From Tolumonas sp. (GTDB taxonomy: Bacteria > Pseudomonadota > Gammaproteobacteria > Enterobacterales > Aeromonadaceae): a DNA stretch of 37,587 nucleotides. The translations under genes and the position numbers were made by a program. The stretch covers positions 1 to 37,587 of the forward strand of contig JAQUHG010000004.1 of assembly GCA_028683735.1 (NCBI GenBank). Direction: 5' to 3'. Below the pieces are notes generated by a model. That model did no database searches. It saw only the letters and a program-made list of their open reading frames with translations, and had not been told where the DNA came from. Within the stretch, counting starts at the first letter, position 1; the number at the start of each line of letters is the position of its first letter. Below are positions 16,548 through 31,629 of the stretch, in pieces.

Positions 16548-16584
16548 AAAAAAGAAAACCCCCGCAGAGTTAACTACGAGGGTT
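16548..16584 (-). terminator. Intrinsic terminator before the giant-protein gene
   Basis: On the minus strand the arms AACCC and GGGTT, with inner pairing, are followed by TTCTTTTTTTT. It is the second of two terminators in the 147-bp gap between the 498-aa and 2426-aa genes. Confidence 0.75.
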
Positions 16585-16600: not shown

Positions 16601-16630
16601 GAAAAAGGCCGAAGTGTTTAAAATTCGGCC
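16601..16630 (-). terminator. Hairpin and U-tract directly after the CAGCGTTAGCAT promoter
   Basis: A perfect 7-bp stem GGCCGAA/TTCGGCC with a 10-nt loop is followed by TTTTTC on the minus strand. It begins 11 nt after the -10 box of the upstream promoter, so it lies at the very 5' end of that transcript. Confidence 0.88.
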
Positions 16631-16641
16631 ATTATTGTGGA

Positions 16642-16670
16642 ATGCTAACGCTGTGCGGTTGTTATTGCAA
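16642..16670 (-). promoter_or_regulatory. Late promoter copy 1 (CAGCGTTAGCAT type)
   Basis: On the minus strand: -35 TTGCAA (16665-16670), a 17-bp spacer ending CAGCGT, then -10 TAGCAT (16642-16647). The 12-bp core CAGCGTTAGCAT is identical to copy 2 and nearly identical to copy 3. It starts just past the 498-aa gene stop and reads towards the giant ejection gene. Confidence 0.7.
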
Positions 16671-16672
16671 CA

Positions 16673-18169
16673 TCAACGGAATAGGCTGCTCATTGATGAA
16701 TCATTATTATTTTGTGGCTGCTTATTTTGAGGCTGCATTGGTGAATTGTATATTTGCTGATTTTTATTGGCTGGCGAACTGTTTAAAATTGCACTTTCCA
16801 ATGTTTTGTATTTTTGGTCTTTTAAAACAGATTGATAACCTGATTCCAGTAATTCCGGTGTAAGCATTTCATTGCTATATCTTCCAGTCTGCATTAGTGC
16901 CCGATAGTAAGCCTGCTTTCCCTGGTCTCCACCAACCCACTCCGTAACAGCTTTCTGTTTAGTGGCGCTCGGATCTGGTGTTGGGCTAGCTACATCGCCC
17001 ATACCATAAAGCTTTTTATATTCTGTTTTTCTTGACTCACCTGCAGCCCGAGAATCTTGAATTTGCTTTTCAATTTCATCTTTACTAGCGCTACTACCGG
17101 CGGCATTGCGTCGAATTTGCTGAATATCTTTTTGTGTATCAGCATCAATATCAGCAACAGACTTGGCATAACCTTTGGGGTCTGGCCCCTGAACAACGCC
17201 AATATCTTGCATCAAAGTGCTTGGATTTTTAACGGAATTAGCAAGATTTGCTCGGGCATTTATCACACCGACTATATCGGCAGGCGCAAATGTTCTGACT
17301 AAATCATTTTTATCACTACTGCGATTAACTGTTACCGGTTTGGGCTCACCTGACGTGCCATCTTCATACACAGGTGTGACCTCAAGCGCCAAGGATCCGT
17401 CCTTCATCGGGACAATGCCAGCATACTTCTTACTAACAACCTTTTTACCTGAATCGTCTACGTTTCCAAGTCCGCTATTTATCTCATCATGAAATACAAC
17501 GTCCATTTGCTGCTTGATTTCAGGTGAATTTAGTTGGTTATAAAATTCCTGGCTATGAAACTGATCTGGTTTGTAATTTGCCATGATATTACCAACGCTA
17601 GTCTTCAACCCTGCTGCAGATGATACAAAATTTTGGTCAGCATATTTATTGATATTCATGGCGCCTGCGCGAGGATCATTCAGTGCGGCGGCTTGCTGTT
17701 CAGTAACTGGTTGCCCTGCAGATATGTTCTTCCATGCACCGACTAATAAACCATTATTTTCTGCAGCCCATAACTGTTTCTGCGTGGTTGTATATTGAAG
17801 TTTCTCTGTTTGTAACTGTTGATGAGAAAGGTCTACCGCAGCTTTCGATTGCGCGACAGTCGCTGATGTTCTTGCACCGTCATTGGCAATGCTAGCCATA
17901 GTTTGTTTTTTATTCAGGTCATCGATTTCACCTTGTCGTTTTCTGTTATATCCAAGCTCTTCTGTATATCTCCCGTCCAGCACGCCTTCTCGATCTACCA
18001 TGTGATTCCATGATTTATCTCGATATTCCTTGCCGTCTTTATATTCTTGCTCTTGCAGATTCATTGAGCGATCGGCTCGGTCACTGGCCTTTTGTTGATT
18101 TTGGTAATCAGCCATAGTGCGGAAGCCATTTAGGAATCCGTCAGCGAACCCCTGCGTTGATAATTGCAT
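16673..18169 (-). CDS. Internal virion/ejection protein (498 aa)
   Basis: The protein is long, polar and mostly helical. The first 100 residues are charged and coiled-coil-like (DYQNQQKASDRADRSMNLQEQEYKDG...), the middle is mixed, and the C-terminus is Asn/Gln/Ser-rich and probably disordered (SPANKNQQIYNSPMQPQNKQ). There is no signal peptide. Composition and position, between small Gly/Ala-rich ejection proteins and the giant polyvalent protein, fit the middle ejection protein of podoviruses (T7 gp15 position); I see no sequence similarity to gp15. AAGGA precedes the ATG at 18169. It is 9 bp from the upstream gene. Confidence 0.62.
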   Translation of the reverse strand: MQLSTQGFADGFLNGFRTMADYQNQQKASDRADRSMNLQEQEYKDGKEYRDKSWNHMVDREGVLDGRYTEELGYNRKRQGEIDDLNKKQTMASIANDGARTSATVAQSKAAVDLSHQQLQTEKLQYTTTQKQLWAAENNGLLVGAWKNISAGQPVTEQQAAALNDPRAGAMNINKYADQNFVSSAAGLKTSVGNIMANYKPDQFHSQEFYNQLNSPEIKQQMDVVFHDEINSGLGNVDDSGKKVVSKKYAGIVPMKDGSLALEVTPVYEDGTSGEPKPVTVNRSSDKNDLVRTFAPADIVGVINARANLANSVKNPSTLMQDIGVVQGPDPKGYAKSVADIDADTQKDIQQIRRNAAGSSASKDEIEKQIQDSRAAGESRKTEYKKLYGMGDVASPTPDPSATKQKAVTEWVGGDQGKQAYYRALMQTGRYSNEMLTPELLESGYQSVLKDQKYKTLESAILNSSPANKNQQIYNSPMQPQNKQPQNNNDSSMSSLFR

Positions 18170-18178
18170 GTCAATTCC

Positions 18179-18436
18179 TTAGAAAAAAGAAGCGATAAGA
18201 CCCACGCCAGCACCAATAGCGGCGCCCATTGGCCCGCCAACCGATCCGGCTTGCGCGCCAGCCATCATGCCAACTGCAGCACCTGTTCCGACAGCACTCA
18301 TAGTGGTTGCCTTTTCTGCTGCCTTTAGCTGTTTATTATCCGCTTCTCGCTGCGCTTCTTGATTTGATACATCAGCCATACCCTGTAGCGCCTGCTGTCG
18401 AGTTGACTGCGCTGCATCTAATAAACTGTAACCCAT
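18179..18436 (-). CDS. Small internal virion protein with glycine-zipper C-terminus (85 aa)
   Basis: The first 45 residues are a polar Gln/Ala-rich helix. Residues about 46-85 (TMSAVGTGAAVGMMAGAQAG..GAAIGAGVGLIASFF) form a Gly/Ala zipper-like membrane segment with small residues at regular spacing. Such segments are common in ejected proteins that build a channel through the envelope (T7 gp14 class). AGGGG lies upstream of the ATG. It is the third of four closely packed small ejection genes and starts MGY, like its neighbour upstream. Confidence 0.62.
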   Translation of the reverse strand: MGYSLLDAAQSTRQQALQGMADVSNQEAQREADNKQLKAAEKATTMSAVGTGAAVGMMAGAQAGSVGGPMGAAIGAGVGLIASFF

Positions 18437-18446
18437 AGCGATCCCC

Positions 18447-18830
18447 TTATGAATTAGCGTTGTCTGTTAACCCGGTGGTGTAGCTACGGGCGTTGCTGCC
18501 AGCAAGAATGCTGAGATTTCGCTCTTCTGCGGCACTGCGAGTGCCATTCTTCGCCGCCGCAACAGCCAGTGATGTATTCAGGTTGCTGCTGTTGTCATTA
18601 GCGTTGGTGGTGGTTGCAACCCCCATTCGCGACATCTGATTGCTTTGTGCTTGTTCCGCGCTGGAAACAGCATTGGCTGCATTGGTTGAAGTTCGGTTGA
18701 GTTGTGCATCCATCAATGAATTGTCAGTCGCCAAACTCATTAACTTTTGCTGCTCTGGGTAATAGCGTGTTTTCCAATCGTTATATTGCTCACGCACGAT
18801 ATTGGCGTATTTGTCAGATGCGTATCCCAT
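18447..18830 (-). CDS. Small hypothetical virion protein (127 aa)
   Basis: The N-terminal 40 residues (MGYASDKYANIVREQYNDWKTRYYPEQQKLM) are charged and helical; the remainder is Asn/Ser/Ala-rich (TSTNAANAVSSAEQAQSNQ..NANDNSSNLNTSLAVAAAKNG), with no Cys. GGAG precedes the ATG. It sits tightly between two other small ejection genes and is probably an internal virion component; no family recognised. Confidence 0.6.
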   Translation of the reverse strand: MGYASDKYANIVREQYNDWKTRYYPEQQKLMSLATDNSLMDAQLNRTSTNAANAVSSAEQAQSNQMSRMGVATTTNANDNSSNLNTSLAVAAAKNGTRSAAEERNLSILAGSNARSYTTGLTDNANS

Positions 18831-18843
18831 TTATAGGCTCCGG

Positions 18844-19404
18844 TTATTTTTTTGTTTTGTAAGCAGCATAGCCGCCAGCGGCGGTACCCAGTGCGTTAAC
18901 CATGCTGGCATGTTCGTTATAGGACGCCTGCGCATCTGCGCTGGCTTTAGCTGCGCTTGATTTAGCCAAGGATGAGTATCCAGATAACGCATCTGCTTTT
19001 TGCCCGGAACCAAGCGATACGACATCAGAAAGGCCTGCGGTGTACTTGCTGGCTTGGTCGTTCTGTGCTTTGTTGGTCGTGTCAATTTGAGAGGTAACTT
19101 GCGACTTGGTTATGTCGCTCATTGCGGCCTGATATTTCCCGCTGGTTGGGTCAACACCAGAAGCCGCCAAATTATCCGATGTTTTCTGCCGCGCCTGACC
19201 AAAGGCGCTTGATGTTTGTGTTGCTGCGTCACCTGCCACTTTGGTGTAATTCGATTCATTATTTAGGTTATCAACCTTATCCATGAACAAGTTTTCATAC
19301 TGTTTAAGGTCGTTTTGGTATGTGCTCCATTGATCTCCGGCAATATCAGCTTGCGCTCGTTGCAAGCTGGTTTCCTGAACTTCATTACTTCCACCACCAC
19401 CCAT
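18844..19404 (-). CDS. Internal virion protein, T7 gp14-like position (186 aa)
   Basis: The protein starts MGGGGSNEVQ, continues as a Gln/Ala/Ser-rich helical protein with no Cys, and ends in a small-residue hydrophobic stretch (ASMVNALGTAAGGYAAYKTKK). The Gly-rich start and AAGGYAAY end are common in the first ejection protein of podoviruses, which sits in the outer membrane after ejection. GAGG precedes the ATG. It follows the GNAT-like gene by 6 bp, the same order as gp13-gp14 in T7. This is a position-based call. Confidence 0.6.
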   Translation of the reverse strand: MGGGGSNEVQETSLQRAQADIAGDQWSTYQNDLKQYENLFMDKVDNLNNESNYTKVAGDAATQTSSAFGQARQKTSDNLAASGVDPTSGKYQAAMSDITKSQVTSQIDTTNKAQNDQASKYTAGLSDVVSLGSGQKADALSGYSSLAKSSAAKASADAQASYNEHASMVNALGTAAGGYAAYKTKK

Positions 19405-19410
19405 AAAACC

Positions 19411-19767
19411 TCACAATGTCATTTCAAAAATCATTCTACCCATTGAATCGTCATCTTTACGCTGCCAGCCATATTTGCTAGCAACACGGATGAAACCCTT
19501 CCTAACCGTATGAAAACGGATGAATCTCGCGTTAATTTTTATGCTTAAGAACTTAACTAAGTCGGTATATTCATTAAGACCGTCTGTTCTTTCTGAAATG
19601 GCGGCCCATACCAGTACGCCAGGTATTTCACAATCAGAGATAGTCTTTAAAACAAACCAAGCTCTATCGCGCACAAACAAAAAAGCCTGCTTTTTAAGGC
19701 AGGCTTCGTAGATTTCTTGCGGTAAGTTTGGCTCTCCGCAATCAGAGGCTATTTTTTTGATAAGCAT
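19411..19767 (-). CDS. GNAT-fold-like small protein, T7 gp13 position (118 aa)
   Basis: The ATG at 19767 gives MLIKKIASDCGEPNLPQEIY; an upstream in-frame start would overlap the fibre gene and is rejected because the fibre stop lies only 2 bp before this ATG. The pattern (RDRAWFVLKTISDCEIPGVLVWAAISE, then IRFHTVRKGFIRVASKYGW near the end) resembles the beta-strand/helix end of GNAT acetyltransferases and of T7 gp13-type proteins, which lie at the same place between tail and ejection genes. Acetyl-CoA-binding residues are not obvious, so enzymatic activity is doubtful. Confidence 0.55.
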   Translation of the reverse strand: MLIKKIASDCGEPNLPQEIYEACLKKQAFLFVRDRAWFVLKTISDCEIPGVLVWAAISERTDGLNEYTDLVKFLSIKINARFIRFHTVRKGFIRVASKYGWQRKDDDSMGRMIFEMTL

Positions 19768-19769
19768 GA

Positions 19770-22700
19770 TTATGAGAATGTGGATGTAGAAACTGGAGAG
19801 ACAATTACTGTGCAGCCATCCCCTGTATCTGTATATACGCCAACCGTGCATGAGCTATAAGCATTAAGCGTAAATACATATGAAATTGGCGCTATTACTT
19901 TCCCGTAGGGAGATGCGTGCGAATATACAGTTTGAACCTCACCCCCATTAACATACACATGACCAGTATATGTTGAGCTATTTCCTGGCACGCCCATTGA
20001 CCCAGTTATCAAAACTTGCCTGGTTCTGTCAGATGCATTTATCGTAATAGTCTGTCCATTTGATAAGCTCTTTACACCAACTACATCACCCACTAATTTA
20101 TTTGCGTAAACAGTACCTAGTACGTTGCAGTTTTCAGCGATGGTGACGTTATTAAATATTCCAGAACTAGCATTCACTTCACCATTAAAGCGCCCGCTAT
20201 CCGCATAAAGCCGGTTTGTATATAGAGAGCCATCTTGATAGATGATGGTATTCCAGCCAAAACCCCAGCCGCCATATGGCCCGCCCTTACCAAACCCCGC
20301 TGCCCCGCTGTCCATGAAAATATTACCGAGCGACAGGGATCCGCCATTGATGATAGGGGATGAGATGCTGACTCCAGCCTTAACGTAATCAGCCGTTAGC
20401 TTCATAGCTGTGACGGTTTCGATTGTTGCAGCTTCAATGACGGCTTTCTGGATAACAACCCGCCCATCAGACACAGCAAATAATGACTGGGTTGGTGCGG
20501 CGCTGTTGGGGTCAAATACAAAAAACTGACTCGCTGAAACCATAACCTGAGATTTCCCTGCGCCATCAACCATAAGGCCAATGCCAGCCTGAACATCCGC
20601 GACCTGACCTTTAACCGTCCACATTGCCTGCGCGCCGGCCTGCAGTGATGAGATAGCTTGGCTTTGTGTTTGAACCGATGCAGTTAGATCGCCAGCTGTC
20701 GCCTGAACGGTATCAACTCGCTGGCTTAAAGCGTTATCTGCAGCGGCTCTATTGGTTACCTCTGCCTGTGCTATCGCGTATGCGCTGTCTGCCCTTGCCT
20801 GTGAGGTGTCAACTCGCTGACTTAATGAGCTATCCGCATCAATGCGGGCGGTTTGCTCTGACAATAAAATAGCGCTAACTGGTCGGGTAGCGTTTGCGTT
20901 TACCCACTGAACCCCGGTGATCATCCACCAGTGCCCGGCGCCGGCATAATCCAATTGCACCCACAAACTAATGCTCGCAGCTCCGGCTGGTATAGTGATT
21001 GACCCGGATATTGTGCGCCATTCTGCCGAGGCATCAGCACGGGAAGCGGCAAGCAACCAAGAAATAACTTCCCCACCGGCATTTTTAACGCAAGCGCCAA
21101 TGCCAATTCCAGGAGCTCCAGAATCCCCGGTGGCACACGCCAAACTAAAGTGATAAACATCTCCGGCCATGACCGGGATATTTTTCCCAATGGTGTCACG
21201 AGCTGAAATTTCAAGGCAGTTTGCCGCCGGGCTGCCTGCTGGCATGTATGGGTATCCGGCGTATCGAACAACGCCTTGTCCGTAGAATCCGTGATTATCA
21301 TTAGTAAATGCCGGATTAATGAAAAGGTTGCCGATATCACCCGCCATTGCAGCTTCGATTTTATCTGTCCGCCCGGCAATGGCGCTATCTGCCGCCACTC
21401 TAGCCTGTTGCTCGGACTGAATGGCCGCCGAAACCCCATTAACAGCAGCTTGTGTTGTATCAATTCGGCTTGATAGTGCGGCGTCAGCGTACGCTCTGTT
21501 TGTGATCTCGGTCTGCGTCAATGCATATGTCGAGTCAGCTTTTGCCTGCGCCGTTGAAGCCATGGTGGTTATAGCTGAATCTGCATTAGCTCGTGCAGTT
21601 GATTCATTTTGAATAGCTGCCGCATTTGCACCAGTTGCAGCAACCACCTGATCAACACGCGAGCTTAGCGCCAGATCTCCGCTTGCTCTGGCCGTCTCTT
21701 CGCTTGATACTTTTGCACTTAATGCCGCATCTGCAGTTTTATATGATGATTCTAGTGTTGATATTGTCTGCGCCAGCGATTCAACTGCTGTAGATCTGGC
21801 TGTTTGCTCGGCCGCAACCTGCGCGGTCAGGCTGGCAGAGGTTGTTTCGAAATCAGCCTGCAATTCCTCAACTGTTTGTGCTAATGCCTCGTGGTTATTA
21901 GCTGTGACAGTCATGTCCTTTCTGATCGATGCTTCTGATACCCGATTCGCCCGGCTTGACTCATCATCAGAAAGTGCTGCGTTTGCTGCTGCCAGTGCCG
22001 CTAAATCTGCTTTTGCCCTTAATTGCTCATAACTGCTTGCGATGGTCTCCGCGTTACTACTCGATGATTGCTGCAACAGCGTGACAGAGCTGTTTAATCC
22101 GGACACTGACGAGTCAAGGTTGCTCAGATGTTGGCTGGTTGCTGAATTGGCTGTTGAAACTGTTTGTGATAGTTGAGTAATAGCAGCTGAATTCGCTGCG
22201 CCAACCGATGCGTTAGCGGTATCAGCGGCTTTATATGCGCTATCGATCTGGCTGATCTGCGTCGCTTTTGATTGCAAATCAGTATTGACAGCGATCAGTC
22301 CAGATTCTGCTGTAGCAACTCTACTTCCCAGCTGATCAACAGATTGCTGTGTCGCCTTCTGGGTGATAGAGCCTTCTGCTGCACTCATGCGGGTAGTTAA
22401 TTGGGTTACATCCTCTGTTGTTTCAATGAATTCAGCCCTGGTGACCTGATTTGTCAGCTCTGCATTAATCGAATCCATCTGCGTTTCAACAGTTGAGATC
22501 CGCTGCGCCTGCAAACCAACCTCAATGGAGGATGCTTTTTGCGTCAATACCCCCTCTACCGAAGAAACCCGCTGTGTAACTTGATCGATATTTGTTTGTA
22601 GTTCAGAACGAACAACATTAATAGCGTCAATCGTTATCTCGCCGGTTGCTGGATCAACGGAAAGTATCGCATTGCGCAGACTTTGAACGTCAGCGCCATA

Positions 22701-23477
22701 CTGCAATACCTTTTTGCTCAGCTCATCGTGCAGCAGTGAAACATTGATAGTTGTTGATCCGAGTAAATCTTGAGCCGCTTTTAATATGGCCTCGGCCTGC
22801 GATTGGCGATCTGTCAGCGATGATAGGTCAACGGTGATCTGCTGTATTTCAGCCGCTCTATCTTGAATGGATGTATTAAGAGCTGGGATCAACTCAATAT
22901 CAGATAACAATGATTGAGCCAAATGACTTTCTTCAATCTGCCCCTGCAGCGCATCCAATATGTTTTGTATATTTTCGGCTGTTTCAGCGTAGGTGCCAGA
23001 CTCCGAATTGTACGGCCCGGCAACCGGAGGGTTGCTCCGATTTACAAATCGAACCCAGTAATACACCTTCGCTGACCCGCCGATTGGGTCTGAGTACATG
23101 TTGGCAGATGAAGTGCCTATTTTTACGGCCAGTGATAAATTATCTGTCTCAGACCTAAACACCTCTGCATACGCATGCCCTCGGTAATTCGGGTCATCCC
23201 ATTCAATCAAAATTGTGTTGAATGCACCGTTGGCAATAACATTGAGCGGTTTTGCCGGGAACTGAATGTCAGTGGGTGAAGATATAAGATCGGTGTTGAT
23301 GCCGGCTTTATAGTTTGATCCTATCCGGGATAGCGTTGCGAGGCCGAGAGACTGCAGATCTCGATATGTCACCGCCTTATCAAGCTGATTCCCGCGCTGC
23401 CCCGTGAGAAGCTCTACATTCTCAGAAACACTGTTTAGATCGCGCCCGGAGGTAAAAGCCGTACTATTAGCCACCAC
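19770..23477 (-). CDS. Large tail fibre, lambda J-like C-terminal architecture (1235 aa)
   Basis: Residues 1-65 probably anchor the fibre to the tail. Residues about 70-165 form a fibronectin III-like module (KPLNVIANGAFNTILIEWDD). Residues about 165-710 are a very long coiled-coil shaft with degenerate repeats (the Q-T-A-R-A-x-A-D-S-A-L-S-x-R-V-D type), followed by a jelly-roll, carbohydrate-binding-like insert (about 712-866, NLFINPAFTNDNHGFYG to WWMITGVQWVNANATRPVS). More shaft follows. Residues about 950-1050 resemble DUF1983 of lambda host-specificity protein J (FFVFDPNSAAPTQSLFAVSDGRVVIQKAVI). The last 150 residues are a compact beta domain and probably the receptor tip. It overlaps the upstream gene by 11 bp. 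Confidence 0.85.
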   Translation of the reverse strand: MVANSTAFTSGRDLNSVSENVELLTGQRGNQLDKAVTYRDLQSLGLATLSRIGSNYKAGINTDLISSPTDIQFPAKPLNVIANGAFNTILIEWDDPNYRGHAYAEVFRSETDNLSLAVKIGTSSANMYSDPIGGSAKVYYWVRFVNRSNPPVAGPYNSESGTYAETAENIQNILDALQGQIEESHLAQSLLSDIELIPALNTSIQDRAAEIQQITVDLSSLTDRQSQAEAILKAAQDLLGSTTINVSLLHDELSKKVLQYGADVQSLRNAILSVDPATGEITIDAINVVRSELQTNIDQVTQRVSSVEGVLTQKASSIEVGLQAQRISTVETQMDSINAELTNQVTRAEFIETTEDVTQLTTRMSAAEGSITQKATQQSVDQLGSRVATAESGLIAVNTDLQSKATQISQIDSAYKAADTANASVGAANSAAITQLSQTVSTANSATSQHLSNLDSSVSGLNSSVTLLQQSSSSNAETIASSYEQLRAKADLAALAAANAALSDDESSRANRVSEASIRKDMTVTANNHEALAQTVEELQADFETTSASLTAQVAAEQTARSTAVESLAQTISTLESSYKTADAALSAKVSSEETARASGDLALSSRVDQVVAATGANAAAIQNESTARANADSAITTMASTAQAKADSTYALTQTEITNRAYADAALSSRIDTTQAAVNGVSAAIQSEQQARVAADSAIAGRTDKIEAAMAGDIGNLFINPAFTNDNHGFYGQGVVRYAGYPYMPAGSPAANCLEISARDTIGKNIPVMAGDVYHFSLACATGDSGAPGIGIGACVKNAGGEVISWLLAASRADASAEWRTISGSITIPAGAASISLWVQLDYAGAGHWWMITGVQWVNANATRPVSAILLSEQTARIDADSSLSQRVDTSQARADSAYAIAQAEVTNRAAADNALSQRVDTVQATAGDLTASVQTQSQAISSLQAGAQAMWTVKGQVADVQAGIGLMVDGAGKSQVMVSASQFFVFDPNSAAPTQSLFAVSDGRVVIQKAVIEAATIETVTAMKLTADYVKAGVSISSPIINGGSLSLGNIFMDSGAAGFGKGGPYGGWGFGWNTIIYQDGSLYTNRLYADSGRFNGEVNASSGIFNNVTIAENCNVLGTVYANKLVGDVVGVKSLSNGQTITINASDRTRQVLITGSMGVPGNSSTYTGHVYVNGGEVQTVYSHASPYGKVIAPISYVFTLNAYSSCTVGVYTDTGDGCTVIVSPVSTSTFS

Positions 23478-25077
23478 TCATCTCCTGCATTGATGTTGCC
23501 AGCGTGATCCGCTCAACTTTTGCATTTCCTCTCACTTCAATCTGCCACTTATACCCTCGGAGTGCGGGAAGCCTGAATGCACCATCAGGCAAAACAGACG
23601 CTGATAAATCCAACTCCTGAACGCCATTAACGAACAACACCATCCCTATCTTACTGATATCGTCAGATACGATCCGGCAACTTGAGAATGAAGTGCCTTG
23701 GTTTTCAATAAACTCTTTACTACGCCAACGAAATTCGACGTTGCTTTCACTGCCACCTCGCCATGAATACAATGCCGTGCCTTTGGCCAAGTACAGCGCA
23801 TCGGCTGTCATATCGTTATAGGCCGCGTCCCATCTATTCGAGAGCTCTCTGAAATCACCGGTTTGCGGGTCATAAATAAACCCCGTTGTATCCGTTATTC
23901 CTATGTATTTCCCTTCATACGACCACGCTCTCAGCGTTGAAGGGCTCATTGCCTGCCACTGATTGCGTGAAATTATTTTATCTGTAGCAACCGACGCTCC
24001 ACTTTCGGTAACGCCAACCAACCCATCCGGTGACGCATACAAAACAACGCCATCAACAGAAACCATTGATCGCTTGCTGATGCAGGCTTGCTGGACATTT
24101 AATTTTTGACTGGTAATCGATGATGATGAAACGCCTGTCATCACATAGGGGTAACCTTTGGTTCCTACAACAAGTGATGTTCCGGCCGGGCAAATAGCCA
24201 CAACGTCATCTTCTGTTGTTAACCGGTTAGCGTTCGGCCATGCATATGGCAAATAGGCGCCAGAAAACAGCACTGTGTTGCCAGAAAAACCTGCGGCAAT
24301 GCCATTCGCCATTAAACATAGGCCGCGCATATCATCTGGAGGCGGCAGGTAATCTTCCGTTGCCAGCGTTGGCCCTAACTGATCATCGGTTAGTGAATCG
24401 ATGAATGAGCCCACAGCGACATCCAGCTCCGCAACCAAGTACCATCCACTGCTGGAATCGCTGGTTGCGCTGCGATATACGCGGCGGCGATTGATATTGT
24501 TGTTATTTGATTGTGGTGCAGAAAAGATAAGTTCAACTGATGAGCCAGGAATGGAGATGGTCACCTCTATCGATGCTGCGCTTGGCGGCCCCTCCTCCCC
24601 GGTGGCTGATACAAAGGTCTGGATGTAATACCGTGATTCATCATCAGTAGAGGAATCATCAGCACTGCCTTCTGGAGGGGTGATAGCACCAATGCCGACA
24701 ATGGCTGATGGCGCGGGAACGCCAAGCCTGAAATAGGCAGTCGGTCTAATCGCCCCCGAAGTAGCCACATCTGACATGGTCACTTTTGGGTAATTACCAT
24801 CAGTGTAATAAACTCGACCATAGTCATCCTGCGCAACTGGCGATCGAATAACATCAACATCACCAGCCCACGAAAACCAGAAATCACCCCAATAATGAAA
24901 AATCGTTTTTGGTGTTGTCGGGAATGTAACTGCGTTAAGGGAATCATCATTCAGTGGTGAAATGACGCCGCTGTCAAAATGGCAATCCTTCGCTAACACA
25001 CCACATTCATCGGGCAATAGAAATGGCTCAACGCGAGGTTTCATTCCCAGCATTGTGGTTATATCAATAGTTGGCAT
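23467..25077 (-). CDS. Tail hub/nozzle or stabilisation protein (536 aa)
   Basis: A beta-rich 536-residue protein with repeated aromatic/Gly blades (TIFHYWGDFWFSWAGDVDVI, YLAKGTALYSWRGGSE), suggesting a propeller-like fold. It is placed between the adaptor/fibre genes and the large fibre. P22 gp10-type tail accessory or tail-tubular-B-like proteins have this composition and position; the exact family is uncertain. The ribosome binding site is poor (GAAAAATCAAA before ATG 25077). The gene begins a transcription unit headed by promoter copy 3 and a hairpin. Confidence 0.6.
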   Translation of the reverse strand: MPTIDITTMLGMKPRVEPFLLPDECGVLAKDCHFDSGVISPLNDDSLNAVTFPTTPKTIFHYWGDFWFSWAGDVDVIRSPVAQDDYGRVYYTDGNYPKVTMSDVATSGAIRPTAYFRLGVPAPSAIVGIGAITPPEGSADDSSTDDESRYYIQTFVSATGEEGPPSAASIEVTISIPGSSVELIFSAPQSNNNNINRRRVYRSATSDSSSGWYLVAELDVAVGSFIDSLTDDQLGPTLATEDYLPPPDDMRGLCLMANGIAAGFSGNTVLFSGAYLPYAWPNANRLTTEDDVVAICPAGTSLVVGTKGYPYVMTGVSSSSITSQKLNVQQACISKRSMVSVDGVVLYASPDGLVGVTESGASVATDKIISRNQWQAMSPSTLRAWSYEGKYIGITDTTGFIYDPQTGDFRELSNRWDAAYNDMTADALYLAKGTALYSWRGGSESNVEFRWRSKEFIENQGTSFSSCRIVSDDISKIGMVLFVNGVQELDLSASVLPDGAFRLPALRGYKWQIEVRGNAKVERITLATSMQEMSGG

Positions 25078-25099
25078 TTTGATTTTTCAGGAGGGAGAA

Positions 25100-25132
25100 A
25101 AAGAAAAACCCGCAACTCAGAGAGCGCGGGTT
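25100..25132 (-). terminator. Hairpin and U-tract after promoter copy 3
   Basis: The stem AACCCGC/GCGGGTT encloses 12 nt, and TTTTTCTTTTT follows on the minus strand. It starts 11 nt after the -10 of the promoter at 25144-25172 and lies before the 536-aa gene. Confidence 0.86.
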
Positions 25133-25143
25133 ATTATTTGGAT

Positions 25144-25172
25144 AATGTAACGCTGGAGATATCTTTGGTCAA
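25144..25172 (-). promoter_or_regulatory. Late promoter copy 3 (CAGCGTTACATT type)
   Basis: On the minus strand: -35 TTGACC (25167-25172), a 17-bp spacer ending CAGCGT, -10 TACATT (25144-25149). It is the closest of the three to the sigma70 consensus and serves the 536-aa tail and large-fibre genes. Confidence 0.75.
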
Positions 25173-25187
25173 CTATGCAGCTGATTG

Positions 25188-25451
25188 CTATGTAGCGACT
25201 TCAGTCTGCTCTACTGGCTCTGGATCAACCAGACCAGCTAAATCCGCGTAAGTTACTGCGCTGGGGTTACCGTCTATATCAGACAGAAATTTTGTACGTT
25301 CAGTTTTGCTATATGCTCGATTGAACGGTTTTTCCGCGATAATAGAGCCGTCGCCTCTGACCACCCGGTTTAACCACTCCACTTCTACTGCTGAATATTC
25401 AGGCAGCACCCTGACGCTTTTTAATACTTTTAATTCTGTTACTTCGCTCAT
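25188..25451 (-). CDS. Small hypothetical protein downstream of the fibre gene (87 aa)
   Basis: The acidic 87-residue protein contains LPEYSAVEVEWLNRVVRGDGSIIAEKPFNRAYS and ends EPVEQTEVAT. It lies 8 bp after the 495-aa fibre gene in the same direction, a place where tail fibre assembly chaperones or fibre-associated proteins often lie, but no known chaperone family is recognised. It ends its transcription unit: a promoter and hairpin follow. Confidence 0.65.
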   Translation of the reverse strand: MSEVTELKVLKSVRVLPEYSAVEVEWLNRVVRGDGSIIAEKPFNRAYSKTERTKFLSDIDGNPSAVTYADLAGLVDPEPVEQTEVAT

Positions 25452-25459
25452 TTCAATGC

Positions 25460-26947: not shown

Positions 26948-26959
26948 TCTTTGCTACCT

Positions 26960-27637
26960 CTACTGCTGAGTGGTTCGCTGGAATGCCTGACTTTGAATTT
27001 GAGCCAACGCATTGTCTGCATTGGTTTTCTCACCAAGCTGCTGTGAAAACGCATTGTAGTGACTAACGGCGCGATTACTGTTTGCAACATAATCAGCATC
27101 TTTGCTGTAGGCGCGATAAAGGATGAAATCAATAATTGGGTTGATGTAGATATCATCGAGATCAGCAACGGCTGGCGTTGTTGCGTCATTAACTTGTGCT
27201 ATCGTTTTTGCCTGTGGAGCAACCGAATAAACCAGGTTAATTTTTGCGGAAGCTATAACACCGGGATAGAGATAGAAAACCTTTGGATCGCGATCATCAT
27301 AAGTGTACGCGGCAGCGTCAGCGGCATCTGCACTAATGTGCCAGTCTGGATAGTTATCATCTAAAGCAGCACGATCTATGTAGCGAATAACACGACCGCT
27401 ATCATTACGCACTACGTCGATCAACTTTAAAGCATTTGACGGAAGTAATTGTTTTGTTCCTGCTGCGCACGTAAATTCAACGTCGGCCGCATTAGCATCC
27501 GGTCTCATAAGGACAATAGCCCGAACGCCATCATTATAATAATCCAGCAGCTCTTGTTTTGGCCAACGAGCCCAAATTTTGTCATTCAGAAGCGTGTTGC
27601 AGCGAGACAGAATTGTATCAACAGTTACAGTTGCCAT
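26960..27637 (-). CDS. Head-tail adaptor-like protein (DUF6682-type, 225 aa)
   Basis: The protein begins MATVTVDTILSRCNTLLNDKIWARWPKQELLDYYNDGVRAIV, a helical pattern shared by phage adaptor proteins that bind the portal and accept the tail. The middle (PSNALKLIDVVRNDSGRVIRYIDRAALDDNYPDWHIS) is beta, and the C-terminus (ADLDDIYINPIIDFILYRAYSKDADY) helical. GGAG lies upstream of the ATG. A terminator lies inside the end of the preceding gene. It is the ring below the portal or its neighbour; the family name is from memory and not certain. Confidence 0.65.
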   Translation of the reverse strand: MATVTVDTILSRCNTLLNDKIWARWPKQELLDYYNDGVRAIVLMRPDANAADVEFTCAAGTKQLLPSNALKLIDVVRNDSGRVIRYIDRAALDDNYPDWHISADAADAAAYTYDDRDPKVFYLYPGVIASAKINLVYSVAPQAKTIAQVNDATTPAVADLDDIYINPIIDFILYRAYSKDADYVANSNRAVSHYNAFSQQLGEKTNADNALAQIQSQAFQRTTQQ

Positions 27638-27651
27638 TTATTGGACTCCAG

Positions 27652-27681
27652 TTAAAAGAAACCCCGTGCTCTGACGGGGTT
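27652..27681 (-). terminator. Intrinsic terminator inside the 3' end of the 194-aa gene
   Basis: An 8-bp stem AACCCCGT/ACGGGGTT with a 6-nt loop is followed on the minus strand by TTCTTTTAA. The hairpin falls inside the final coding codons (NPVRARGFF), so coding and terminator overlap. Confidence 0.8.
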
Positions 27682-28236
27682 GGAAAATTCGGATTGAACT
27701 AGCTCATTCGATTGCGCCAGCCTGAATCTGGCGGCTCGCCGATAACCTTCGGTGAATTCTGCGCCATATAACTGAGCGCGCTTGCCGTCAGTCCACGGCA
27801 TGCCTGGTTGCAGATATAATATTTTTGCAGCACCGAACGCGATTGTTTCGGCGTGGTCGTCGTAGATTGGCTTGGGCAATGAAGAGGCTGACTGAATTGG
27901 CTCAACGTTATAGCCAATCGTCATGCTTGGAATGTCCCGCAATGCCTTGAGTTGATTGGCTGATATAGCGATGTAATCAATGCCGCCAGACAACAGCTCG
28001 CCATCACCACCAACAATAGAGTTCAGATCGGATGATTTCAGGTTGTCGTCAGTGCAAACTGTGATTGCTTGCCCGGCAATGACGCCGGTAAGTGTTTTGC
28101 TATCAACCAAATATTTACTGTTTCGGCAGAAAATAATAGCGGCCTCAACTACAGCCGCCCTCATCATGATTTCAAGTGGTCCGGTAATATGCCGGCGCAC
28201 AATGGGCAGAAATATTTCCGGATCAACCATGTCCAT
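27652..28236 (-). CDS. Phage head-completion/connector-like protein (194 aa)
   Basis: The protein begins MDMVDPEIFLPIVRRHITGPLEIMMRAAVVEAAIIFCRNSKYL and is mixed helix/beta, with the C-terminus rich in Arg and aromatic residues. The stop of the previous gene and the ATG overlap as TAATG, so translation is coupled. Position between coat-associated genes and the adaptor suggests a connector or head-completion role. Its last codons encode the hairpin of an intrinsic terminator. No family is confidently assigned. Confidence 0.6.
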   Translation of the reverse strand: MDMVDPEIFLPIVRRHITGPLEIMMRAAVVEAAIIFCRNSKYLVDSKTLTGVIAGQAITVCTDDNLKSSDLNSIVGGDGELLSGGIDYIAISANQLKALRDIPSMTIGYNVEPIQSASSLPKPIYDDHAETIAFGAAKILYLQPGMPWTDGKRAQLYGAEFTEGYRRAARFRLAQSNELVQSEFSNPVRARGFF

Positions 28237-28673
28237 TATTCAGCTGCCTTAGCCTGTTTTTCTTTCAGTGCATCGCGGACACGAACCGCATAATCACGCA
28301 CTAATTCGCCCGGGTTAATTTCAATGCCAAGGCTTTCAGATTCAACGATAGTTTTCAGCTTGGTGCTGGTTAACTTACCCAGATCGCCATACCCATCAAC
28401 AACAAGACTTGCCGCGGCCAATTCAGCCAATCGATCTTCTTCGGCCTTTTCAGCAGCCAATTGCGCAGCGAATAATTTTTCTTCCTGCTCTTTCTGAACC
28501 AACTCGTAGTCAGACTCTTTAACCCAGACATCTTTGTGCGATAAAAACTTATACGCCACATCGACAGGGACGGGGATTGGAATGCCTGCAGGAAACGACA
28601 GGTTTGTACCGTAAACGGTGTCTTTCTTTTCCGGCTTACTGCCGATATAAACAAGATTAATTGTTTCAGCCAT
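28236..28673 (-). CDS. Hypothetical virion protein with acidic helical middle (145 aa)
   Basis: The N-terminal 50 residues are beta-like (INLVYIGSKPEKKDTVYG). A highly charged helix follows (ELVQKEQEEKLFAAQLAAEKAEEDRLAEL), then a C-terminal segment with Lys/Glu-rich helices (DLGKLTSTKLKTIVESE). GGGA precedes the ATG. It lies between the decoration and connector genes and shares a stop/start overlap with the latter. It may be a head-associated or assembly factor; no family recognised. Confidence 0.6.
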   Translation of the reverse strand: MAETINLVYIGSKPEKKDTVYGTNLSFPAGIPIPVPVDVAYKFLSHKDVWVKESDYELVQKEQEEKLFAAQLAAEKAEEDRLAELAAASLVVDGYGDLGKLTSTKLKTIVESESLGIEINPGELVRDYAVRVRDALKEKQAKAAE

Positions 28674-28689
28674 GATGATTTCCCAGAAT

Positions 28690-28714
28690 AAAAAAGGCCC
28701 ACCGAAGTGAGCCT
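28690..28714 (-). terminator. Intrinsic terminator between decoration and 145-aa genes
   Basis: The stem AAGGCTCAC/GTGGGCCTT with a TTCG tetraloop is followed by TTTTT on the minus strand. It would cut down read-through from the coat/decoration region. Confidence 0.88.
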
Positions 28715-28730
28715 TGATTAATTGATTGTT

Positions 28731-29126
28731 TTACAGGGTGCCAACAACTTCATAGTGGGCACGGAATGTCACCTTGCCGGTAGCAGCGGCGCCACCAACG
28801 ACGAGTGATAACGTGGTGTTATCTACAGACGTCAATGCATCTTCGATTGGTTTGTAGCCAGAGCCAGCAGATGCGCAACTCAGGCCAGCGATCAGCGCGG
28901 TATCGCCGAGCTTAACGTCGATAGTCACACCCGCGCCAAGCGCCGCATTAATGTATTCAATACCGGTCAGCTTGCATCCGGCTGGAAACTGGCGACCTTC
29001 GATAACCGTGGCCGCCGCGTCGGCAGCGAAAGTAAAACTGAAACCAGCCTTTGAGCTGTTACCAGCAGAGCCTTGATAAACCGCCTTCCCCAGCAGGTTT
29101 GATTTTTTGGTATCCATATTTGCCAT
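28731..29126 (-). CDS. Putative capsid decoration (cement) protein (131 aa)
   Basis: A small Ala/Gly/Val-rich, beta-rich protein without charged clusters (AGFSFTFAADAAATVIEGRQFPAGCKL, then TLSLVVGGAAATGKVTFRAHYEVVGTL), encoded directly after the coat gene. Jelly-roll cement proteins of podoviruses have this size, composition and place. AAGGA precedes the ATG. A stand-alone decoration protein beside a coat with no obvious extra domain fits a cement role; it is inferred from composition and synteny. Confidence 0.62.
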   Translation of the reverse strand: MANMDTKKSNLLGKAVYQGSAGNSSKAGFSFTFAADAAATVIEGRQFPAGCKLTGIEYINAALGAGVTIDVKLGDTALIAGLSCASAGSGYKPIEDALTSVDNTTLSLVVGGAAATGKVTFRAHYEVVGTL

Positions 29127-29138
29127 ATTCCTTCATCA

Positions 29139-29165
29139 AAAAGAAAAGACCGGACAATGCCGGCC
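29139..29165 (-). terminator. Intrinsic terminator between coat and decoration genes
   Basis: The stem GGCCGG/CCGGTC (one G-U pair) with a 6-nt loop is followed by TTTTCTTTTT on the minus strand. Confidence 0.85.
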
Positions 29166-29179
29166 ATAACTATTCCCGC

Positions 29180-30388
29180 TTACAGAGTGATTGCGGTATC
29201 CAGCGCGATAACGCCGAGGTCATTGATCTTGCCGTACTTGTCAGCAAAGCGGATTTTCTTGCGGCCATTGATCCAACTGATAGAGATTTCAGTGCTATTT
29301 CCGTGATCGGCTGGTTCTTCATGGTAGTTAAACGAACCACCGTTTTGTGCACCAAATGCCAACGCCATAGCCTGACCACCCAACAGAATTGCACGGTCGA
29401 TATTGGTCGCCGCATTTACCTGTGCGATGGTTGCCGCGTTGTCATTGTTGGAAATATTGACAACATCACCGGTTTTGAAGCGGATCGGCATGCCACTACC
29501 TTGGCGAACCAAGATGTTGCGCCACATCGCACATTGCCCTTTGAACAATGGATGATTGAAACCTTTAGAGCGATTAACTGCGTTGGCCGTCATCGCCTGC
29601 CAGTCTTTACCAGCGGTTGATGTGTACCAGTCATTCCATTGGCGCGGAGTAACACTCAGCACATACCACGGGTCTTCATCGGCCATTTCATCGCCAGCAA
29701 ACTTAACAGGTGACAATGGTGTTGCCAGCTCTGATAAGTACAGTGACAAATTATCTACACAAGCCAGGCTAAACTTATCCGCTGAGTCGATACCAGCAAA
29801 TGAAGTGGCATCACCGCCGAAGAAATGACGTTCATAGGTTGGTGGCAGGACGTCATTAACCATGATTTTTTGATATTCTTCGTCATCAGCCAATGGGACG
29901 ATAATTCCGGTTCCAGAAACCGAACCCCGCGCACCAGCCAGATGAATGGTTGTTAACTGATCATCCAGCTGACCATAGTAAGAGCCAGTCAGCAAAGTTC
30001 GCGCTGTTTTCTTCAAACCGTGCTTGGTTCGCTGTTGCGACATCTTGCCGCCAGCATCGACACCATGTCGGCCCTGATTGATTTTCAGTGAGAAGCTGGC
30101 CTGAGACAGGTTTTCTAAACGACCTTCCAGCTTCTGATCACCCATAGTTGGGCGGCCATTCAGCTGATGGAAGATCTGCATATCCACTTCATCACCAGCC
30201 GTTTTACTCAGATCGGTAACGCGAACAATGGGGGCTTTGTGACTTGATTGATTCTTGGCATTATCCGGCTGCGCTTCCTGTGGTGCGGAGTCCGTCATCA
30301 TATTGGCGAACGATTTGGTGCGATTAGCTTCGGTAAATAACGCCGCCTGCATGATCTTGTTAGACATGGCGCTGGTTACTTGTGTCAT
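29180..30388 (-). CDS. Major capsid (coat) protein, DUF4043/phage capsid family (402 aa)
   Basis: Residues about 40-402 match the phage capsid family that includes N4 gp56-like proteins (SHKAPIVRVTDLSKTAGDEVDMQIFHQLNGRPTMGDQKLEGRLENLSQASFSLKINQGRHGVDAGG, and a C-terminal ISISWINGRKKIRFADKYGKINDLGVIALDT). The HK97-type coat fold is expected. There is no scaffold domain at the N-terminus; a separate scaffold gene precedes it, as in P22. GGAG is 6 nt before the ATG. Terminators stand before and after, so coat expression may be set apart from its neighbours. Confidence 0.88.
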   Translation of the reverse strand: MTQVTSAMSNKIMQAALFTEANRTKSFANMMTDSAPQEAQPDNAKNQSSHKAPIVRVTDLSKTAGDEVDMQIFHQLNGRPTMGDQKLEGRLENLSQASFSLKINQGRHGVDAGGKMSQQRTKHGLKKTARTLLTGSYYGQLDDQLTTIHLAGARGSVSGTGIIVPLADDEEYQKIMVNDVLPPTYERHFFGGDATSFAGIDSADKFSLACVDNLSLYLSELATPLSPVKFAGDEMADEDPWYVLSVTPRQWNDWYTSTAGKDWQAMTANAVNRSKGFNHPLFKGQCAMWRNILVRQGSGMPIRFKTGDVVNISNNDNAATIAQVNAATNIDRAILLGGQAMALAFGAQNGGSFNYHEEPADHGNSTEISISWINGRKKIRFADKYGKINDLGVIALDTAITL

Positions 30389-30410
30389 AAATTTCTCCAG
30401 GACTAGAAAC

Positions 30411-30433
30411 GAAAAAACCCGCCGAAGCGGGTT
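30411..30433 (-). terminator. Intrinsic terminator between scaffold and coat genes
   Basis: The stem AACCCGC/GCGGGTT with a UUCG tetraloop is followed by TTTT on the minus strand. Coat mRNA therefore needs read-through, or a promoter that I cannot see. Confidence 0.88.
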
Positions 30434-30453
30434 AGTTGAATTTTGGTTTGTGA

Positions 30454-31440
30454 CTACAGATCGATAGAGTTAAGGATCTTATCTATCTCAGTAGGGCTAA
30501 GCTTACTGAACTCAGCATTCAACTGAGACGGGGAAAGTCCGGCATAATATTCAGGGGTGCCGCGCGTTGCAGTCTCACGAACACTATTACCGATATCAGA
30601 CGGGCTGTTTGGCAGCGAGTCTTCCTTTGCCTTCTTCTGTGGCTGTTGAGCTGGGTCTTGTTTTGTTTCTGGCTTTTCTGGTTTTACTGCATCGCCAAAT
30701 GCTGACGCAGTGCGGCGAACCGCTTCCAGAAAGCGCTCTCGAACAGGCTTTGACTGCCATAACGGATCAGTCATTAACTCGGCATCTTTGGCCTTTGCGT
30801 AATCCATGCGATCTTGATCGCTTGTCTCCCACAAAACCAATTCAGGGATACTTTCAAAAGCTTGTCTTGCCGTTGATTTTTCTGGATCAACAGTAGCAGC
30901 CTGCTGATTCAACTTACCTTCAAGCTCACGTATTTTTTCTGCCTGCTTAGCAATGACTTTCCCTACTGCTGGAAAGTCATCAACTAGCGCATTTAGCTCA
31001 TCATCCGTTTTGCCATCAAGTTCATCTGTACTTAAATCAATGCCATGCTTATCCAGTACCAACTGCAACTTGTCACGCTCAGCCTGAATCACTTTTAACT
31101 GCTGATTTTCCTGCTCAAGCGTTGCAGCCTTCGTGCGCGCATGCTCAAGGACTTCATACGGGATGGTGTGTTTGCCGTCTTTCGACAGGACAACCTTCTC
31201 CTGATCAGCGTTATTAGTTTTTTCAGAGCTGGTTGCATCGCTAACAGCTCCACCTTCTGCCGCCGTCGTCGCGGTGGTTACGACCTTTTCATCCGGTTTT
31301 ACTGTTTCAACTGGCTTGGTTTCAGTAGTCGCTTCATCGGCGTCTGCATCACCTGATTCGTATTGCTCAATTAATTTATCCAGAGCATCCAAATCACCAG
31401 AGTCCATTGCTTCGTTAAGTGCCTGTTCGTCAAATTCCAA
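30454..31440 (-). CDS. Scaffold protein (328 aa), TTG start
   Basis: An acidic, helical, Cys-free protein: N-terminal Glu/Asp-rich segment (EFDEQALNEAMDSGDLDALDKLIEQYESG), Thr/Lys-rich linker, coiled coil (residues about 115-180, TKAATLEQENQQLKVIQAERDKLQL), and a C-terminal helix (YYAGLSPSQLNAEFSKLSPTEIDKILNSIDL), typical of podovirus scaffolds placed directly before the coat gene. A TTG at 31440 preceded by GAGGT at 7 nt is chosen; an in-frame ATG at 31491 has no ribosome binding site and would add 17 atypical residues. Confidence 0.8.
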   Translation of the reverse strand: MEFDEQALNEAMDSGDLDALDKLIEQYESGDADADEATTETKPVETVKPDEKVVTTATTAAEGGAVSDATSSEKTNNADQEKVVLSKDGKHTIPYEVLEHARTKAATLEQENQQLKVIQAERDKLQLVLDKHGIDLSTDELDGKTDDELNALVDDFPAVGKVIAKQAEKIRELEGKLNQQAATVDPEKSTARQAFESIPELVLWETSDQDRMDYAKAKDAELMTDPLWQSKPVRERFLEAVRRTASAFGDAVKPEKPETKQDPAQQPQKKAKEDSLPNSPSDIGNSVRETATRGTPEYYAGLSPSQLNAEFSKLSPTEIDKILNSIDL

Positions 31441-31525
31441 TTTTATTACCTCGTTGTTTGGGTTTTTTCGCGCCCTAGCGGGTAAATGCACTTGTATAAA
31501 TGCGCTTACCTGCTGAGTCGCAGAA

Positions 31526-31555
31526 ACAAAAAAGCCCCGCGATATGCGAGGCTTA
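31526..31555 (-). terminator. Intrinsic terminator before the scaffold gene
   Basis: The stem AAGCC(T/C)CGC with loop ATATC and arm GCGGGGCTT is followed by TTTTTGTTTC on the minus strand. It is the second hairpin after promoter copy 2. Confidence 0.8.
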
Positions 31556-31558
31556 GAA

Positions 31559-31587
31559 ACGAAAACGGCACTCCAGATGGAATGCCG
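31559..31587 (-). terminator. Hairpin and U-tract directly after promoter copy 2
   Basis: The arms CGGCA..TCC and GGA..TGCCG with loop ATCT form a stem of about nine pairs, followed by TTTTCGTTTC. It starts 13 nt after the -10 of the promoter at 31601-31629. Confidence 0.75.
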
Positions 31588-31600
31588 CTATGATGGGAAG

Positions 31601-31629
31601 ATGCTAACGCTGACGGATTAAAAAAGCAA
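31601..31629 (-). promoter_or_regulatory. Late promoter copy 2 (CAGCGTTAGCAT type)
   Basis: On the minus strand: -35 TTGCTT (31624-31629), a 17-bp spacer ending CAGCGT, -10 TAGCAT (31601-31606). It shares the 12-bp core CAGCGTTAGCAT with copy 1. It lies just past the portal stop and directs transcription to scaffold, coat and downstream genes. Confidence 0.7.

What the first reader, a model, noticed from the sequence alone, without database searches (positions are those of the whole stretch)
16601..31629. Three identical promoter-hairpin cassettes in the virion operon
At 16601-16670, 25100-25172 and 31559-31629 a sigma70-like promoter (TTGnnn, 17 bp, TAGCAT/TACATT) with the shared core CAGCGTTA(G)CAT is followed 11, 11 and 13 nt after the -10 by a GC-rich hairpin with U-tract. 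The start site would be 5-7 nt before the hairpin. Such fixed geometry three times is not chance. Possibilities: a lambda pR'-tR'-like antitermination gate repeated along the operon; a 5' hairpin that stabilises late mRNA; or an insulator that ends upstream transcripts while reloading polymerase.
Basis: partly seen in the sequence, partly recalled or inferred. Interest (0 to 1): 0.85.

Follow-up and report, generated by a model that had tools for sequence, protein, structure and literature searches.

The report
Repeated Q-type gates in phage operon
A prophage's virion-gene operon carries three copies of a predicted promoter followed at once by a terminator-type hairpin, and a fourth copy lies on another contig of the same genome at the end of a gene whose protein has a predicted lambda-Q-like fold; these are likely gates that would open only when that protein rides the polymerase, so this phage would check its late transcription at four places where lambda uses one.

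The parts
31590..31629 (-). Gate S3, promoter part: -35 TTGCTT 31629-31624, candidate Q-binding block + -10 CAGCGTTAGCAT 31612-31601, predicted start A 31594, -10-like CATCAT 31595-31590
   Evidence: identical 40-mer in the relative contig IMGVR_UViG_3300034682_000453 (L349, L259)
31565..31588 (-). Gate S3 hairpin, followed by TTTCGTTT
   Evidence: -16.9 kcal/mol
31532..31554 (-). Second terminator-like hairpin behind S3
25133..25172 (-). Gate S2, promoter part: -35 TTGACC, block CAGCGT, -10 TACATT 25149-25144, predicted start A 25137, -10-like AATAAT 25138-25133
   Evidence: near copy with the same hairpin upstream of the 90%-identical gene in L468
25107..25132 (-). Gate S2 hairpin, followed by TTTCTTTT
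   Evidence: -14.3 kcal/mol
16631..16670 (-). Gate S1, promoter part: -35 TTGCAA, core CAGCGTTAGCAT 16653-16642, predicted start A 16635, -10-like AATAAT 16636-16631
   Evidence: similar gate with near-identical hairpin in L160 of the relative contig
16607..16630 (-). Gate S1 hairpin GGCCGAA...TTCGGCC, followed by TTTTTCAT
   Evidence: -10.7 kcal/mol
16557..16584 (-). Second terminator-like hairpin behind S1
36577..37476 (-). Terminase small subunit
   Evidence: PHROG hit
33785..35443 (-). Terminase large subunit; 67.5% identical to Stx-phage and 75.9% to phiARM81mr TerL
31636..33783 (-). Portal protein; gate S3 starts 7 bases past its last base
29180..30388 (-). Major head protein, downstream of S3
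23467..25077 (-). Internal virion protein (536 aa), first gene behind gate S2
19770..23477 (-). Tail fibre protein, behind S2
9245..16525 (-). Giant 2426-aa late protein, first gene behind gate S1

Best explanation
Each of the three sites is a predicted sigma70 promoter followed 5 nt after its -10 by a -10-like element and at once by a terminator-type hairpin, and it likely works as a lambda pR'-tR'-type gate that would pass polymerase only when it is loaded with the phage's own likely Q-type antiterminator, a TIGR02642-like protein. Proposed steps, all inferred: (1) polymerase starts at the A that is position 36 of the cassette (16635, 25137, 31594). (2) Sigma region 2 rebinds the -10-like hexamer at -1..+5 and polymerase pauses. 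(3) Without the protein, polymerase moves on and ends at the hairpin, giving an RNA of about 35 nt. (4) With the protein bound to the conserved C(A/G)GCGT block between -35 and -10, it is handed to the paused polymerase, narrows the RNA exit channel, and polymerase runs through this and later terminators. (5) One such gate at the usual pR' place starts the late operon; the three inner copies load fresh antiterminating polymerase before the capsid module, the internal-virion/fibre module and the giant protein, and would also stop unmodified polymerase coming from upstream. Shown by sequence: the anatomy, positions, conservation and neighbouring genes. Shown by computation only: the match of the predicted protein fold.
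Confidence: 0.84

Rival explanations
1. Small-RNA genes: each cassette is a constitutive promoter with its own terminator that makes a roughly 35-nt RNA acting as an sRNA or sponge; antitermination plays no part.
For: Promoter plus immediate terminator would give a short terminated RNA. A prophage-borne small RNA, Gifsy-1 IsrK, is known (PMC4825925, seen only as search listing and start of the abstract).
Against: Hairpin sequences differ widely while promoter core and spacing are kept, the reverse of what a base-pairing RNA would need. No Rfam match in the window at gathering scores. The core differs in step with the Q-like protein.
Confidence: 0.06
2. Insulators or reloading promoters without antitermination: hairpins end upstream transcripts and sigma70 promoters restart transcription, some of it leaking through.
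For: All three sites stand in gaps in front of virion genes, two of them large.
Against: The promoter comes before the hairpin, so it would be cut off by its own terminator; a simple insulator would have the opposite order. A -10-like element at fixed spacing is not needed for it.
Confidence: 0.05
3. 5' stabilising hairpins: the hairpin at about +6 protects late mRNA from decay and is not a terminator.
For: The hairpin begins 5-6 nt after the predicted start, a place fit to shield a 5' end. In 9 of 41 cassettes no T-run follows directly.
Against: A run of four T follows in 55 of 58 viral cassettes, typical of terminators and not needed for a 5' clamp. It does not explain the -10-like element or the co-varying core.
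Confidence: 0.03
4. Recombination linkers or a spreading repeat: short shared sequences between modules that exchange genes, without a role in transcription.
For: They lie at module borders, and one copy occurs in satellite-like elements.
Against: Same four places in phages whose proteins are far diverged; different core in different phages but a common core inside each.
Confidence: 0.02

Closest known systems
Lambda pR'-tR' with Q (and phages 21, 82)
   Same: A -10-like pause element in the first transcribed bases and a Q binding element at the promoter (PMC9371919 and PMC7171158 passages), the element lying partly between -10 and -35 in lambdoid pR' (PMC6266700 and PMC7969949 passages); terminator before the first late gene; antiterminator gene upstream. 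The predicted protein fold matches lambda Q, which also has an inserted zinc finger.
   Different: Lambda has one such gate (recalled); here there are four. The hairpin starts right at the -10-like element, far closer than lambda tR' (about +190, recalled). No sequence match to the Pfam Q families.
AlpA of Pseudomonas aeruginosa
   Same: One antiterminator serving more than one promoter (alpB and PA0807); binding element between -35 and -10; -10-like CACGAT at -1..+5; terminators beginning at +54 and +26 (PMC7969949, PMC9371919 passages). Second-best fold match.
   Different: Two separate chromosomal operons, against four gates in one phage late region; different binding element (GGGACG); hairpin here begins at about +6.
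933W / Stx phage late operon
   Same: Same order of terminase, portal and virion genes; TerL 67.5% identical; an annotated Q gene ahead of the late genes.
   Different: In phage vB_EcoS_P22 no second copy of the Q-adjacent promoter region was found (best other match 27 of 51, noise 26), and I saw no gate in the matching gene gaps read.
Caulobacter GTA regulator GafZ
   Same: Antiterminator of a phage-like cluster with a putative binding element between -35 and -10 (PMC11150451 passages).
   Different: Single target promoter; according to its authors no sequence or structural likeness to the known antiterminators.

Membership tests
Lambda-type Q-dependent late gate (pR'-tR') | sigma70 -35 and -10 with about 17-bp spacer | tested here: met
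   TTG + 17-nt spacer + TAnnnT in S1-S3 and the fourth copy; sequence only
Lambda-type Q-dependent late gate (pR'-tR') | -10-like pause element in the first transcribed bases | tested here: met
   Hexamer with A2 and T6 exactly 5 nt after the -10; A39, not fixed by the pattern, in 34 of 41 cassettes. Pausing itself untested
Lambda-type Q-dependent late gate (pR'-tR') | Binding element for the antiterminator at the promoter | tested here: inconclusive
   Conserved block between -35 and -10: C18 35/41, A19 35/41, not fixed by the pattern; binding not testable here
Lambda-type Q-dependent late gate (pR'-tR') | Intrinsic terminator between promoter and first gene | tested here: met
   Hairpin and T-rich tail at all three sites; sequence only
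Lambda-type Q-dependent late gate (pR'-tR') | Antiterminator gene in the same phage, upstream of the first gate | tested here: met
   C218 in the own genome; on one contig with four gates in a relative; gene identity rests on predicted fold, and that C218 is the same prophage is inferred
Lambda-type Q-dependent late gate (pR'-tR') | Read-through of the terminator depends on the antiterminator | not testable with these tools
   needs transcription assays
Pfam Q families PF03589 (lambda Q), PF06530 (Q21), PF06323 (Q82) | Sequence match to the family model | tested here: not met
   hmmscan of five TIGR02642-like proteins at E up to 10 lists none of them; accessions from PMC7171158
Lambda-Q fold antiterminators | Fold of lambda Q / AlpA | tested here: met
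NCBIfam TIGR02642 (own-genome protein) | Score over the curated cut-off 101.4 | tested here: not met
   86.4 bits for the own-genome protein; p41 of phiARM81mr 249.7, G260 280.9, G346 113, G024 87.4, G002 63.3. The own protein is a homologue below the cut-off, hence 'TIGR02642-like'
Known small RNA families (Rfam) | Match above gathering score | tested here: not met
   0 matches in the window

The most novel reading that the evidence does not exclude
A distributed Q regulon: one phage-encoded Q-fold antiterminator of an undescribed family reads four pR'-tR'-type gates spaced along a single late operon, the gates' core and the protein co-evolve as lock and key, and satellite-like elements (integrase + Ash + DUF927) carry one gate without the protein so that a helper phage's antiterminator would switch them on.
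Probability: 0.45. Interest if true: 0.85.

Novelty: new variant of a known kind. Interest (0 to 1): 0.74.

Why it matters
Q control is taught as a single switch at the head of the late operon. If these gates work as read here, a group of 933W-like phages checks the polymerase again at large virion modules, which would bear on how long late operons keep distal genes expressed. It gives a likely function to a family that NCBI calls only 'TIGR02642 family protein' and that no paper in the held library names. The naturally different cores (CAGCGTTAGnAT, ACGCGCTAAATT, TGCAGTACAAT, AGTTGGTAAnAT) would make a ready set for testing how Q-type proteins choose their promoters. A lone gate in satellite-like elements would be a new way of sensing a helper.

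Tried and rejected
Rejected: sRNA, pure insulator, 5' clamp and recombination-linker readings (see rivals). Geometry alone as proof was rejected: the generic finder gives 30 hits in 40 shuffled windows. Assigning the protein to a Pfam Q family was rejected. Joining C218 to the window by sequence overlap failed; the link rests on a relative. Looking for the core in the Stx and Vibrio relatives gave nothing convincing.

Weak points in my counts: related cassettes are not independent. In one search three of the 41 cassettes (S2, one of G027, one of G024) were added by hand to the 38 pattern hits, and the pattern itself fixes 13 columns. The 29 hairpins used for pair types were chosen for pairing (at least 9 of 10), so that tally leans towards pairing. 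In one search one of 63 portal loci was too short and left out; misses are 4 of 62, and 2 of the 58 hits were found by the generic finder only. There, 17 of 20 contigs without a detected TIGR02642 gene also had a gate; many are fragments, so the table speaks for position, not for association with the gene. In one search, 83 places match the 29-base pattern and 51 places match the full 40-base one; I did not look at the flanks of the rest. One of the 57 viral loci (L404) is only a zinc-finger hit. One search missed the gate that overlaps the gene end in L349, so its counts and distances were redone. Literature: none of the titles and abstract starts listed describes several pR'-type copies in one late operon; I read passages of six of those papers and no paper in full; the library holds open-licence papers only.
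Full report
WHAT IS THERE. The window is contig C177 of an assembly of 3.36 Mb in 387 contigs. Named relatives of its TerL and of the Q-like protein discussed below are from Aeromonas phages, Aeromonas genomes and Tolumonas. About three quarters of the window are the late operon of a 933W-like phage on the minus strand: TerS, TerL, portal, 345-aa protein, head protein, several virion proteins, fibre proteins, a 536-aa internal virion protein, and a 2426-aa giant protein. TerL is 75.9% identical to Aeromonas phage phiARM81mr and 67.5% to Stx phages. The three sites lie in the gaps after the portal (S3), before the 536-aa gene (S2) and before the giant gene (S1).

THE CASSETTE. Read on the minus strand, each is TTGnnn, 17 nt, a -10 (S1 TAGCAT, S2 TACATT, S3 TAGCAT), exactly 5 nt, a second -10-like hexamer (AATAAT, AATAAT, CATCAT), then a hairpin at base 0 or 1 with a T-rich tail. 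The block before the -10 is CAGCGT in all three. S1 and S3 have a further terminator-like hairpin behind. Terminator-like hairpins without such a promoter stand in three other gene gaps on the same strand, at 30433, 29165 and 28715, and one more in the gap between 35632 and 35690, so a polymerase would have to pass several terminators to reach the end of the operon.

THE FOURTH COPY AND ITS GENE. The 40-base pattern has three matches in the whole assembly: S1, S3 and one at C218:29291-29330. That copy's -35 overlaps the stop codon of a 225-aa open frame, and its own hairpin follows. The frame is a homologue of NCBIfam TIGR02642 (86.4 bits, under the cut-off of 101.4). In phiARM81mr, p41 (249.7 bits) stands before the same kind of cassette and then the holin. 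No sequence overlap joins C218 to the window. However, one 59-kb viral contig carries a 91%-identical protein whose gene end overlaps a gate in the same way, a 97%-identical portal followed by a gate with the same 40 bases as S3, a 90%-identical internal virion protein preceded by a near copy of S2, and an S1-like gate.

GEOMETRY AGAINST PUBLISHED GATES. In the AlpA promoter the -10-like element lies at -1 to +5, substitution of its A at +1 or T at +5 harms antitermination, and the binding element lies between -35 and -10 (PMC9371919, PMC7969949; passages only). The cassettes have the same layout: C or A at -1 in 40 of 41, A at +1 and T at +5 (these two fixed by the pattern in 38 of the 41). 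Among the 41 distinct cassettes, columns not fixed by the pattern are also conserved: C18 35, A19 35, G26 39, C34 38, A39 34 of 41. Hairpins start at base 0 or 1 in nearly all, although their stems differ; among the 29 of 118 distinct 24-nt hairpins that fit a 10-bp stem, each of the 10 pair positions shows more than one standard pair type (these 29 were chosen for pairing).

CONSERVATION. In 75 family genomes the 40-base pattern has 51 matches in 16 genomes; read backwards it has 3. TIGR02642 at 60 bits or more occurs in 17 genomes, 14 of them among the 16; the pattern occurs without the gene in G021 and G019, and the gene without the strict pattern in G013, G024 and G002. In 57 viral loci with the gene, the pattern occurs 77 times from the gene's end onward and 0 times before it, and 0 times on the other strand. 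A gate with the core (up to one mismatch) lies downstream in 51 of 57; in 17 it is within 300 nt, in 34 it is 0.9 to 7.5 kb away. Of the other six, three have a gate with a variant core, two have under 2 kb downstream, and one is a zinc-finger-only hit. 57 of 58 distinct viral cassettes, picked blind to what follows, have a hairpin at base 0 or 1, against 293 of 1740 random sites. Behind portal genes, 58 of 62 testable viral loci have a gate.

CO-CHANGE OF CORE AND PROTEIN. The strongest evidence that one protein reads all gates comes from phages with diverged proteins. In G260, from another GTDB family, the gates stand after the TIGR02642 gene, after the portal, before the 541-aa internal virion gene and before the 2785-aa giant gene, with ACGCGCTAAATT in three and ACGCGCTACATT in one (these virion genes are named by order and size, not by family search). 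G346 has two gates with TGCAGTACAAT; G002 two with AGTTGGTAAnAT, one 44 nt behind the gene; G024 three with GCGTTA and a CT-type -10. Mean identity over 23 bases is 0.72-1.0 inside a phage and 0.33-0.51 between phages of different core type; the own phage, phiARM81mr and G024 share a core type (0.64-0.71) (one leading base of each G260 and G002 gate was trimmed to align them). Protein identity to the own one is 33% (p41), 22% (G260), 25% (G346), 42% (G002) and 36% (G024).

SATELLITE-LIKE ELEMENTS. One gate lies behind a P4-type integrase gene and before an Ash-family gene and a DUF927 gene in G021; G031 has the same kind of element, with no Pfam hit for the gene at the Ash place. G021 has no TIGR02642 match. 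That such elements listen to a helper is a guess.

LIMITS. No RNA data. Cassettes are related, so counts are not independent trials. Some relatives lack inner gates (G012 at two places). In 9 of 41 cassettes no T-run follows the hairpin directly; eight of them have the stem type seen at giant-gene gates of Aeromonas phages, where a separate terminator stands further on in the ones read. PDB and family names come from the calls; lambda's single gate and the place of its tR' are recalled.

VERDICT. Observation confirmed, first interpretation supported. It is a new variant of a known kind: a Q-type gate, here repeated three more times along the operon and paired with a protein family that no paper in the searched library names.

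Noticed in passing
L084:8614-8653 (G021), L072:8228-8267 (G031); also single pattern hits in G083:C21 and G074:C81: In G021 and G031, satellite-like integrated elements carry one gate between a P4-type integrase gene and a small gene (Ash family in G021), followed by DUF927; G021 has no TIGR02642 match. The contexts in G083 and G074 were not read.
   Followed up: partly
window 30433-30416, 29165-29148, 28715-28694; also 27681-27660 and 19707-19682: Terminator-like hairpins on the operon strand without a promoter in front: three in gene gaps, two inside or at the end of coding frames.
   Followed up: no
L006:30643-32276 (phiARM81mr), L009:14874-16525 (Vibrio phage 1F273_PE002): These relatives carry a reverse transcriptase and an Avd-type or 23S-intervening-type gene (annotated; looks like a diversity-generating retroelement) near the place where the window has only an 87-aa gene (25188-25451).
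   Followed up: no
window 9245-16525: The giant 2426-aa late protein matches a PHROG model labelled DNA methyltransferase (phrog_15406), best over residues 1645-2365.
   Followed up: no
IMGVR_UViG_3300034682_000453 (L349, L405, L468): A 59-kb viral contig is a close relative of this prophage (portal 97%, internal virion protein 90%, TIGR02642-like protein 91%).
   Followed up: partly
L024 (G012), gap before the 536-aa gene: Looks like a decayed gate: a hairpin remains but the core and -10 are not recognisable; the giant-gene gate is missing too.
   Followed up: no
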